From NCBI RefSeq assembly GCF_000968535.2, contig NC_016112.1, positions 3,658,001 to 3,722,000 of the forward strand: 64,000 bases of DNA, read 5' to 3'. Below, one piece after another: positions 33,633-39,273 of the stretch. Origin of the DNA: Methylotuvimicrobium alcaliphilum 20Z. Its GTDB lineage: Bacteria; Pseudomonadota; Gammaproteobacteria; Methylococcales; Methylomonadaceae. How positions within the stretch are numbered: position 1 is the stretch's first letter; each line of letters opens with the position of its first letter. Below the pieces are notes generated by a model, which did no database searches, had not been told where the DNA came from, and saw nothing but the letters and a program-made list of their open reading frames with translations. A program made the position numbers and the translations under genes.

Positions 33633-33985
33633 AGCGCAACCATAATGTTAATCCTGCTTTAACATTTACCTATTATACCTTTCACACTTCAAATTTCTTG
33701 GCAGAAACAAAACGTTGGGTACCTTTTGCGGGACGGGTTATTTAACCCGTCCCCAATGTTTCGGTTTGCCCTAAACATTTCGGCTTACTTCGGCCAAAGT
33801 CGAAACGTTTAGGACGGGGTTGCAAACCCCGTCCTGCTAGGTTACTTATTATTTCTGGACAGCTTAACTTAGTATTTGGCCTTGGCCTGGACGGGCTAAA
33901 TAACCCGCCCCGCAAAGGAGCCATCTTTTCTCGGTTTCGAACTCCGCACAACTAACTCGCAAAATACGCAGCCTTTTTTCAGGCA
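33633..33985. repeat. Repeat-filled gap between csp and the TerB-like gene
   Basis: Holds an R-C left end (33674-33697, TATACCTTTCACACTTC), an R-G unit (33728-33838: GCGGGACGGGTTATTTAACC, a TCGGCCAAAGTCGAAACG arm, and the stem GACGGGGTTGCAAACCCCGTC) and a further half unit (33886-33912). No gene. Confidence 0.8.
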
Positions 33986-34254: not shown

Positions 34255-34809
34255 AGTAAGTCCTATAAAATTTTAAATTAAAAGCCTTAAGAAAGGCGGG
34301 TAAAGCTGATAACGATGGAGTTACTATATGAAAAACAGGACGAATAACTACTGAAGAGACATCGAAATGGTAAACAAAGGTAAATCTAGTTTTCTAGCTG
34401 GAACTCATTGTAGGCCGATTATTAGCATTGTCAATTTAATTCTGGAAAATCCGTCGATTTATTCTGTTTCCCAAGGTTCTTCGCTCGTTGTTATACCTTT
34501 CGCACTTCAAATTTCGGCAGTGCCCGAGGAGGCGCCGGGGTGTCCGGTCGATTTTCGCTCCTGCAAAATCGACATTCACACCATCCATGGCGCTCATAAA
34601 GGCTTTGCCAGCATGGAGCTGGCATAGAGACTACATGGACGTATTTACCCAGCACCTAAATTCCATAGCCCATTGGCCATGGTTAATTGTCTTGGATAAT
34701 TTAGGTGCTGGGTTCACGGCGCGTCCTTTGACGGACACCCAGGTGCCGAATTTTGATCTACGACGGGTATATAACGATGAGCGCAAAGCGGGGGCTTGAC
34801 CGATTTAAC
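34255..34809. repeat. Gap with csp leader and R-C element
   Basis: The first about 110 bp are the AT-rich leader/promoter region of csp (possible -10 TATAGT on the minus strand). A complete R-C element occupies 34492-34771 (TATACCTTTCGCACTTC ... CTACGACGGGTATA) with the shared core at about 34632-34720 interrupted by R-D (34648-34712). A small open frame at 34367-34627 overlaps the element and is not a gene. Confidence 0.8.
34648..34712. repeat. R-D 65-bp palindrome inside R-C
   Basis: Starts CCCAGCACCTAAATTCC and ends ATTTAGGTGCTGGG, with an inner arm pair GGCCATGG-type loop. It interrupts the core ACGTATT|CACGG of the surrounding R-C element at the same point as the copies at 51262 and 57520. 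Confidence 0.85.
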
Positions 34810-36195
34810 TCAACGATCCGCCAACGTCGTAATTATCGGAAACTGAACGCCTTGACGCTGACGGAATCCAATCAACGGTGCGATGCCTTTCGATAACAAA
34901 GCATTGACTTGAGTCTCATTCAATAATGTTTCGGCGCCGGGCTGCAAAACCGGCTCATCATCCAAGATATAACTAAATACCGGCACATCGCTCATCAATA
35001 ATGCATTGTCCGTACTGTCTTCTTGAGTCATTCTTATTAGCGCACGAGCGCATAACAGGGCCGGATTTCCCCATAGCAGTTCATTCCGGACAGGGACCTC
35101 CGAACACTCTTCAAAAGCCAATGTTTCAACCGGGTCACGCTTCAATCCGTAGGGTAATCTCAATAAGTAGCGAGGATATGCCAGCACCACGCTATCGGCA
35201 TTAATCTCGCTAAGGTATCGAGTCCAATCGCCGTCTTTTTTAGACTCCCCTAAGATCGCGCTATCGATCAATGACTGGCCCGCAGCACCAAGAAAACAGC
35301 CGCCGCAAGCTTTTGCCGTAGCACCCAAAAACTTAAGCAATTCAGCATCTTCAGCACTGCCGGCAAAGCTAAAATCGCCGACCAACAATACATCCCGCCC
35401 TTCGTCGTCCAATTGAACATGCGCCAACAAGCGCTCTTTAAACTCGCTGCCCCCTTCATTGACAGCGGCCATTAATTCGGCTTGGCTGATATCGACTAAA
35501 AAGAAGCACTGCTCGTCCGCATACTCTTCATTGACTAGCGCTTCGGTGGCTCGCCAAAGGGACTCGAGGCTTTTAAAATCCTGTCGTTGCAGTAGGGTTC
35601 GCAAAAATTGGCTGACCGTCTTTTCGATTACATCAATCAAAGCCTGATACTGCAAACTAACATCCTTGGTTATATAAGGCGACACGACCCGTTCGATCAA
35701 CCTTTCCACCGTGTCGGCTTTATCGGTCTTGGGCTCCGGCGCTTTGCCCAGCAAACGTTGCAAGGTATCCGCTTCGGTCTCGGCATCGACTTGCTGCGTT
35801 TGGGCCGAAATGTTTTGATTAGGGTCGGTTTGATTGAACGATTGAATTTTCGCCGCAGCCTGCGCCGCCGTTTTCGGGTTACTCAACGCTTTTTTTAATT
35901 CGAGCAAGTCAGCCAAAATCCGGATTTTGTTAAACCAGGCATCCGGATGAAAGTCTTCGATCGATTCAAAATGCAATGTCACACCCGAGTCAAGATCGAG
36001 CGTCGGCCTGATTTGAGTCATTACCGGCTCAAAAGTATCGCTGTCGATCCTTTGAATATTACGTTGACTCCACGCAGTATCACGCTTTCCGGAAAAATCC
36101 CCCAACACATAAATTCGATAGGCGTTAGCGTGTTCTTTTTTAGATGCGATGCCCCGGGCATTAAGTCCCATCTTAAAATCGATTCTACTTGACAT
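34810..36195 (-). CDS. Fused type VI secretion sheath protein TssB-TssC, orphan
   Basis: 461 residues. The N-terminal part (about 1-120) resembles the small sheath subunit TssB: YRIYVLGDFSGKRD, IDSDTFEPVMTQIRP and the LHFESIEDFHPD segment followed by LLELKKAL. A low-complexity Gln/Asn/Thr linker follows, then a TssC-like part (ALIDVIEKTVSQFLRTLLQ, RQDFKSLESLWRATEALV) and the AYPRYLLRLPYG segment. No other T6SS gene is in the window. Start chosen at ATG 36195, with GGGAGA before it, rather than 54 bp upstream. It follows the ATP-grasp gene by 329 bp on the same strand, with repeats between. Function is unknown; a sheath of a contractile injection system is inferred from family only. Confidence 0.8.
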   Translation of the reverse strand: MSSRIDFKMGLNARGIASKKEHANAYRIYVLGDFSGKRDTAWSQRNIQRIDSDTFEPVMTQIRPTLDLDSGVTLHFESIEDFHPDAWFNKIRILADLLELKKALSNPKTAAQAAAKIQSFNQTDPNQNISAQTQQVDAETEADTLQRLLGKAPEPKTDKADTVERLIERVVSPYITKDVSLQYQALIDVIEKTVSQFLRTLLQRQDFKSLESLWRATEALVNEEYADEQCFFLVDISQAELMAAVNEGGSEFKERLLAHVQLDDEGRDVLLVGDFSFAGSAEDAELLKFLGATAKACGGCFLGAAGQSLIDSAILGESKKDGDWTRYLSEINADSVVLAYPRYLLRLPYGLKRDPVETLAFEECSEVPVRNELLWGNPALLCARALIRMTQEDSTDNALLMSDVPVFSYILDDEPVLQPGAETLLNETQVNALLSKGIAPLIGFRQRQGVQFPIITTLADR

Positions 36196-36524
36196 GCTTT
36201 TTCTCCCAACCCGACCGATAAAACCGGACAGTAGCAGACACGGTTTCATCAGACAAGCAATGAAATCGAATCGTCACATTACGGTGCAAAGCTTTAGCCT
36301 CGCGGTGATCGACAGTCTCGCAGAGTAAGCCTCGCGTGCCTTTTTTAGTTTAGGCTGAGTAACTACGGATGACTTGCGAAATGGTGCGCGGGGCGGGTTA
36401 TTCAACCCGCCCCGAACGTTTCGATTTGCTTCGGCCACGATCGAAACGCTTAGGACGGGATTGCAACCCCGTCCTGCCAAGTATCCTACAATTAACTTTG
36501 AATTTTGATCTACGATGGGTATAG
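36196..36524. repeat. R-G unit and R-C right end before tssBC
   Basis: R-G occupies 36388-36479 (GGGGCGGGTTATTCAACCCG and a GGACGGGATTGCAACCCCGTCC stem). The right end of an R-C element (TGAATTTTGATCTACGATGG GTATA) lies at about 36499-36522, two bases before the stop codon of the ATP-grasp gene. No gene. Confidence 0.8.
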
Positions 36525-39040: not shown

Positions 39041-39249
39041 TATACTCATCGTAGATTAAAATTCGGCCTCGGGGTGCCCGTTAAAGGACGCCGTAAATAC
39101 GTCCATGTAGGCTCTATGCCAGCTCCATGCTGGCAAAGCCTTTATGAACGCCATGGATGGCGTGAATGTCGATTTTGCAGGAGCGAAAATCGACCGGACA
39201 CCCCGAGGCCTCCTCCGGCACTGCCGAAATTTGAAGTGCGAAAGGTATA
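39041..39249. mobile_element. R-C MITE-like element inside the protease-transglutaminase unit
   Basis: 209 bp, starting TATACTCATCGTAGATTAAA and ending GAAGTGCGAAAGGTATA, with the shared core in inverted form (GGACGCCGTAAATACGTCC) and stems CCAGCTCCATGCTGG and GCCATGGATGGC. Ends read TATACC/GGTATA type, compatible with insertion at TA. It fills most of the 270 bp between two genes expected to be one operon. Confidence 0.75.
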
Positions 39250-39273
39250 AGATCAGAAAGAAACGATATCGAA

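What the first reader, a model, noticed from the sequence alone, without database searches (positions are those of the whole stretch)
34810..36195. Orphan TssB-TssC sheath fusion outside a T6SS cluster
A single protein contains a TssB-like N-terminal part and a TssC-like part joined by a low-complexity linker. No baseplate, tube, ClpV or membrane-complex gene is nearby. It is downstream of the protease/transglutaminase/ATP-grasp set on the same strand. It could be a relic, part of a dispersed contractile system, or a sheath-like protein with a different role.
Basis: partly seen in the sequence, partly recalled or inferred. Interest (0 to 1): 0.6.

Follow-up and report, generated by a model that had tools for sequence, protein, structure and literature searches.

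The report
Truncated single-chain secretion-sheath protein, conserved
A methane-eating bacterium carries, far from its type VI secretion gene cluster, an intact protein that copies one whole building block of the contractile sheath in a single chain but lacks the block's inner connecting part; related bacteria keep the same protein, often inside the cluster, so it is probably an overlooked accessory of the machine rather than a relic.

Summary
ORF 36195-34810 (minus, 461 aa) joins a TssB-like part (aa 4-114) to a TssC-like part (aa 140-461). It is not a full TssC: it ends at TssC residue 373 of 499, so the C-terminal gpW/gp25-like domain (VipB_2) that makes the tube-facing 'handshake' layer is missing. 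The genome has a complete T6SS 1.47 Mb away with separate tssB and tssC. The fused gene is intact and under purifying selection (dN/dS 0.17-0.32). Among 151 Methylomonadaceae genomes it is in 34, all T6SS-positive, and in none of 84 T6SS-negative ones. In several other genera, in other Gammaproteobacteria and on Alpha-/Betaproteobacterial plasmids it lies inside or beside a complete T6SS cluster with separate tssB and tssC. All fused proteins form one clade apart from canonical TssC and the tandem second TssC. Retained: an N-terminal strand matching the TssB donor strand, the contraction-specific acidic residue (VipB D333), and a linker helix mirroring the cognate TssC N-terminal (ClpV-class) helix. 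I read it as an accessory sheath-protomer mimic, most likely one that joins but cannot extend the sheath; that mechanism is inferred. I found no description in the papers searched.

The parts
34810..36195 (-). gene for the fused TssB-TssC(N-domain) protein, 461 aa plus stop
   Evidence: orthologues share the same start, M(S/P)(S/G)RIDF
36203..36207 (-). ribosome-binding site GGGAG, 7 nt before the ATG
   Evidence: sequence
36160..36186 (-). aa 4-12 RIDFKMGLN, aligned with the TssB N-terminal donor strand (beta1) region of canonical TssB; TssB residues 1-17 are absent
   Evidence: hhalign; donor strand described in PMC5807055. That it still acts as a donor strand is inferred; pLDDT here is below 50
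35854..36186 (-). TssB-like part, aa 4-114, equivalent to TssB 18-137 of 176
35746..35778 (-). linker helix aa 140-150 (TEADTLQRLLG), counterpart of the TssC N-terminal helix of the ClpV/TagJ coevolution class
34813..35778 (-). TssC-like part, aa 140-461, equivalent to TssC 18-373 of 499; the C-terminal VipB_2 domain is missing
   Evidence: structure match Z 26.3 to 5n8n_B residues 53-373
34915..34917 (-). codon of E427, equivalent to VipB D333, the residue needed for contraction; acidic in 46 of 49 fused proteins

Best explanation
It is an accessory component of the cell's own type VI secretion system: a single-chain mimic of one TssB-TssC sheath protomer, made only of the middle and outer layers and lacking the inner domain. 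Shown: it is intact, selected, confined to T6SS-bearing genomes within the family, one clade, and truncated at the same place everywhere. Inferred: through the retained TssB-type N-terminal strand and the retained sheath interface it docks onto canonical subunits at the distal, growing end of the sheath. With no acceptor sheet for the next protomer's arms and no tube contact, it ends or limits growth (a cap or chain terminator, or a brake when abundant). Its linker helix lets it be handled by the cognate ClpV/TagJ recycling route.
For: Found only with T6SS in the family: 34 of 67 TssK-positive genomes, 0 of 84 TssK-negative. Inside or beside T6SS clusters in other taxa. No fused protein has VipB_2, while divergent TssC and tandem TssC2 do. 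Predicted fold is a TssC middle/outer-domain match: Z 26.3, rmsd 3.1 A, 289 aligned, ending at TssC1 residue 373. D333-equivalent is acidic in 46/49. Linker helix type agrees with the class of the genome's canonical TssC wherever both were read. One clade, 100/100. Published: the inner domain carries the handshake (PMC5807055); sheath grows at the distal end (PMC5511345); sheath subunits altered elsewhere co-assemble and block T6SS (PMC5797969). The family has a single short TssA and no second TssA-like (TagA-type) gene.
Against: No interaction, localisation or phenotype data. The N-terminal strand is low confidence in both models. In Methylotuvimicrobium and Methylomonas the gene is unlinked to the T6SS and shares no T6SS neighbours. 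About half of T6SS-positive Methylomonadaceae lack it, and they also lack TagA, so it is not the obligatory terminator. One fragmented genome (G364) has the fusion but no TssC or TssK hit. It evolves much faster than TssC, which also fits a looser partner than a lattice subunit.
Confidence: 0.4

Rival explanations
1. Soluble regulator: it never enters the sheath but competes for ClpV/TagJ, or holds free TssB or TssC, tuning recycling or preventing premature assembly.
For: The linker helix mirrors the class-specific TssC helix. Ser/Thr kinase genes of one family lie near it in five loci. Fast evolution.
Against: It keeps the whole protomer fold and the D333-equivalent lattice residue, more than a decoy needs.
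Confidence: 0.22
2. Ordinary co-polymerising alternative sheath subunit, mixed along the sheath.
For: Sheath fold; retained N-terminal strand and D333-equivalent.
Against: Without VipB_2 it cannot form the inner handshake layer that holds the sheath together (PMC5807055). Canonical TssB/TssC is always present where checked in good genomes.
Confidence: 0.1
3. Spike- or baseplate-associated part, for example a first ring whose missing inner domain is supplied by the gp25-like TssE, or a VgrG-linked loading or quality-control factor.
For: vgrG is a close neighbour in L049, L100, L101, L111, L113, L116 and L118. TssE and VipB_2 both belong to the gpW/gp25-like type.
Against: vgrG is not next to it in most other loci, including Methylotuvimicrobium and Methylomonas. 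Seven loci is a weak signal inside clusters that contain vgrG anyway.
Confidence: 0.15
4. Relic or gene-fusion accident without function.
For: Isolated locus flanked by intergenic repeats; reduced domain content.
Against: dN/dS 0.17-0.32, same truncation point across 49 proteins, conserved motifs, intact frames in many genera.
Confidence: 0.03
5. Part of a second, dispersed contractile system such as an eCIS or prophage tail.
For: The genome also has an eCIS/phage-tail-like locus with its own sheath near 2.47 Mb.
Against: The fused protein resembles T6SS sheath (Z 20-26) far more than eCIS or phage sheaths (Z up to 16). No full-length phage relative. It tracks T6SS.
Confidence: 0.03

Closest known systems
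Canonical T6SS sheath pair TssB/VipA plus TssC/VipB (PF05591; PF05943 + PF18945)
   Same: TssB-like and TssC N-domain-like sequence and fold; N-terminal strand region; D333-equivalent acidic residue; TssC-type N-terminal helix
   Different: One chain instead of two; no PF18945 inner domain; no TssB N-terminal 17 residues (the end to which TagJ binds in TagJ-type systems); separate fast-evolving clade; always an extra copy
Second TssC of tandem tssC-tssC2 clusters (ImpD / Agrobacterium TssC40, PMC3702570)
   Same: An additional TssC-like protein next to the sheath TssC; TssC40 is needed for Hcp secretion and is not redundant with TssC41
   Different: Tandem TssC2 proteins have no TssB part and keep the VipB_2 domain; they fall outside the fused clade. 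That these TssC2 are ImpD orthologues is my reading of their position, not tested
TagA / TssA cap proteins
   Same: Proposed site of action, the distal end of the sheath (inferred)
   Different: ImpA_N family, unrelated in sequence; only one short TssA per genome here
Single-chain sheath proteins of eCIS, R-pyocins and phages
   Same: N- and C-parts in one chain with the same core fold (Z 10-16 over model residues 21-461)
   Different: Those keep their inner domain and form the sheath itself; sequence identity 6-14%

Membership tests
T6SS sheath small subunit TssB/VipA | PF05591 match over most of the profile | tested here: met
   aa 4-117, profile 8-133 of 155, E 1.2e-13, above cut-off; NCBIfam TIGR03358 below its cut-off, 48.6 of 97 bits
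T6SS sheath small subunit TssB/VipA | separate protein with its own N-terminal helix and C-terminal part | tested here: not met
   fused; TssB residues 1-17 and 138-176 have no counterpart
T6SS sheath large subunit TssC/VipB | PF05943 N-terminal domain | tested here: met
   aa 185-445, E 2.1e-21
T6SS sheath large subunit TssC/VipB | PF18945 C-terminal gpW/gp25-like domain (inner layer) | tested here: not met
   absent in the window protein and in all fused proteins tested; present in canonical TssC and TssC2
T6SS sheath large subunit TssC/VipB | NCBIfam equivalog TIGR03355 above cut-off | tested here: not met
   72 bits against a cut-off of 271.5
T6SS sheath large subunit TssC/VipB | assembles into the contractile sheath | not testable with these tools
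   needs biochemistry or microscopy
ImpD/TssC40-like tandem second TssC | same clade as tandem TssC2 proteins and possession of VipB_2 | tested here: not met
T6SS accessory component | occurs only with, and in part inside, T6SS gene clusters | tested here: met
   34/34 in TssK-positive family genomes, 0/84 without; in or near clusters; exception outside the family: G364, fragmented
T6SS sheath cap/terminator | localises to the distal sheath end and stops growth | not testable with these tools
   inference from domain content only

The most novel reading that the evidence does not exclude
A so far undescribed T6SS accessory family: a natural, single-chain, inner-domain-less sheath protomer that joins the canonical sheath as a chain terminator or brake and is cleared through the same ClpV-class helix. 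It would be a sheath-derived length or activity control, distinct from TssA/TagA caps.
Probability: 0.35. Interest if true: 0.75.

Novelty: new variant of a known kind. Interest (0 to 1): 0.58.

Why it matters
RefSeq labels such proteins simply 'contractile sheath large subunit', which hides a distinct, widespread family. If it caps or poisons the sheath, it gives a genetic handle on how sheath length, number and firing are limited, an open question since sheath growth at the distal end was shown. It also warns that TssB/TssC hits outside clusters need not be relics or second systems.

Tried and rejected
Relic: rejected by selection and conservation. Second contractile system: the eCIS-like locus near 2.47 Mb has its own phage-type sheath. 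Phage origin: only weak partial hits in two unannotated phage records. ImpD/TssC40-like identity: rejected by domain content and tree. Complementing PF18945 gene elsewhere in the genome: only the canonical TssC has it; two gp25-like hits are TssE and one in the eCIS-like locus. TagA replacement: the whole family has only one ImpA_N gene with or without the fusion, so the absence of TagA does not discriminate. Conserved neighbours of the gene in Methylotuvimicrobium/Methylomonas: none beyond the genus. Rfam on 28-43 kb: nothing. Literature searches for TssB-TssC fusions, TssC paralogues and COG3516/COG3517 fusion found no description; these cover open-licence papers only. Neither model says anything certain about residues 1-22, 122-140 or 150-177.

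Full report
OBSERVATION. The minus-strand ORF 36195-34810 encodes 461 aa. The ATG has GGGAG 7 nt upstream, and orthologues begin at the same residue, M-x-(S/G)-R-I-D-F. Pfam finds VipA at aa 4-117 (E 1.2e-13) and the VipB N-terminal domain at aa 185-445 (E 2.1e-21), and nothing else above cut-off. NCBIfam finds the TssC and TssB equivalogs well below their cut-offs. PDB sequence matches are T6SS sheath chains only. The upstream Zn-protease, transglutaminase/7TM and ATP-grasp genes are confirmed.

WHAT IS MISSING. A profile comparison places fused aa 140-461 on TssC 18-373 of 499 (E 2e-54), and fused aa 4-114 on TssB 18-137 of 176 (E 1e-15). The C-terminal 126 residues of TssC are absent. They contain Pfam VipB_2, the 'tail sheath gpW/gp25-like domain'. 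In 151 family genomes every VipB_2 hit lies at a canonical TssC and none at the fusion. A home-made model of this domain finds all canonical TssC and divergent tandem TssC2 proteins but no fused protein (best E 1.3). In the P. aeruginosa sheath the inner layer is built from TssC beta11/beta12 plus a donor TssC beta13 and a donor TssB beta1 (PMC5807055). Equating the lost part with the beta11-13 region is my inference from its C-terminal position and the Pfam domain.

STRUCTURE. AlphaFold2 with 39 orthologues gives mean pLDDT 79.8, pTM 0.80 (the 30-sequence model gave 73.5). VIA-align gives Z 26.3, rmsd 3.1 A, 289 aligned residues, model 170-461 on TssC1 53-373 of 5n8n. Other T6SS TssC chains score 20-25; single-chain eCIS, pyocin and phage sheaths score up to 16 over model residues 21-461. 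The fused chain therefore looks like a sheath protomer without its inner domain. Residues 1-22 and most of the linker are low confidence.

GENOME. The genome (G000; a Methylotuvimicrobium, since M. buryatense 5G is 93% identical at the protein; probably M. alcaliphilum, from my own knowledge and not tested) has a complete T6SS near 2.21-2.23 Mb with FHA, TssK, TssL, TssM, TagF, TssA, TssB, TssC, Hcp, TagJ, TssE, TssF, TssG, ClpV and VgrG (names of these genes other than TssA, TssB, TssC, TssE and TssK rest on my reading of the proteins and on their order, not on a family search). The fused gene is at 3.69 Mb.

DISTRIBUTION. In 151 Methylomonadaceae genomes the fusion occurs in 34. All 34 have TssK; none of the 84 TssK-negative genomes has it (Fisher 2e-15, not corrected for phylogeny). 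In Methylotuvimicrobium the neighbourhood is conserved within the genus only, and in Methylomonas it differs. In other genera of the family the fusion lies within about 35 kb of tssC or directly in the T6SS cluster; L054, for example, has it next to tagF-tssM-tssL-tssK-fha. Outside the family it occurs in 17 further gammaproteobacterial genomes in two samples, 15 of them TssK-positive; the others are G364 and G358, both fragmented. It also occurs on plasmids of Rhodobacterales and Eleftheria terrae, inside clusters that also carry tssB and tssC; RefSeq calls it 'contractile sheath large subunit'. Nearby genes recur: vgrG next to it in L049, L100, L101, L111, L113, L116, L118; Ser/Thr kinases of one family in five loci; FHA-SLT, HEAT and DUF922 proteins in a few genera.

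EVOLUTION. Fused proteins form one clade against canonical TssC (100/100) and against canonical plus tandem TssC2 (100/100), so a single origin is not contradicted. Some long branches make the inner order unsure. dN/dS between orthologues is 0.17-0.32 at unsaturated distances. Canonical TssC stays about 80-90% identical between genera of the family, while the fused protein falls to 30-50%.

MECHANISTIC CLUES. (1) The N-terminus of most fused proteins keeps an alternating strand pattern (RIDFTMGF, LKFDFRFS, RFDFSFNW) aligned with the TssB beta1 region, and lacks the N-terminal 17 residues of TssB; [quoted passage not shown] (2) The linker holds a helix. Where the canonical TssC is of the TagJ type (DFSALLxKEFKPKS) the fused helix is mostly LxRLLG; where it is LLEQAI- or LLSQIM-like, the fused helix is (L/I/F)LD plus hydrophobics, e.g. 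canonical GLLSQIMTETRMKPSD against fused SFLDSIMQETQNRPSG in G838. This matches the ClpV/TssC coevolution classes of PMC4239648; it may reflect a single event, as those fused proteins are related. (3) VipB D333, needed for contraction (PMC5797969), is acidic in 46 of 49 fused proteins. (4) Subunits with altered linker or D333 co-assemble and block T6SS, and the sheath grows at the distal end (PMC5511345).

INTERPRETATION. A protomer mimic that can offer a donor strand and lattice surfaces but has no acceptor domain would stop propagation where it joins. I therefore favour a cap/terminator or brake on the resident T6SS (confidence 0.4 for the mechanism; about 0.85 that it is a functional T6SS accessory). 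A soluble ClpV/TagJ- or TssB/TssC-binding regulator is the main rival, then a baseplate/VgrG-associated role. Nothing here shows binding or localisation.

NOVELTY. No paper in the open library describes it. The closest precedent, Agrobacterium TssC40/ImpD, is a separate TssC homologue (PMC3702570); tandem TssC2 proteins of this general kind keep VipB_2 and fall outside the fused clade. I class it as a new variant of a known kind: an accessory paralogue of T6SS sheath proteins.

Noticed in passing
L116 13009-16674 and L118 12913-16662 (Rhodobacterales plasmids): The fused protein there is over 1000 aa: an extra TssB-like stretch lies several hundred residues upstream of the complete TssB-TssC fusion. 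The RefSeq start codon of L116 (13483) omits the first TssB-like stretch.
   Followed up: partly
C-termini of fused proteins in L110, L116, L117, L118: Acidic tail of about 100 aa with repeated LDDLLA-like motifs ending in (M/L)D(A/P)(E/D)LxALLxxL; possibly a short binding motif like the TssC N-terminal helix.
   Followed up: no
window 34491-34648 and 39093-39250: 158-nt inverted repeat, 96% complementary, flanking the fused gene and the ATP-grasp/transglutaminase genes; further 25-30 nt repeats at 33799, 36440 and 42617.
   Followed up: no
G000:C2 2461000-2480000 (L139): The same genome carries an eCIS/phage-tail-like locus with a phage-type sheath, a VgrG-like spike and a gp25-like protein.
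   Followed up: partly
L119-L128 (Gammaproteobacteria): T6SS clusters with tandem tssC-tssC2 (ImpD-like). Both keep the VipB_2 domain; most TssC2 form their own clade, while the lone TssC of L129 and L130 stand apart.
   Followed up: partly
L050 60-1754, L054 2347-4026, L056 1813-3507, L058 2879-4555: FHA domain joined to a transglycosylase (SLT) domain with a transmembrane-like stretch, next to or near the fused gene in a few genera; possibly a phospho-regulated wall-opening enzyme of the T6SS.
   Followed up: no
G039, G051, G097, G107, G117, G126, G131, G137, G143: A second T6SS type in Methylomonadaceae with a divergent TssK (about 95-125 bits) and mostly no ImpA_N gene; the fusion is absent from these genomes.
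   Followed up: no
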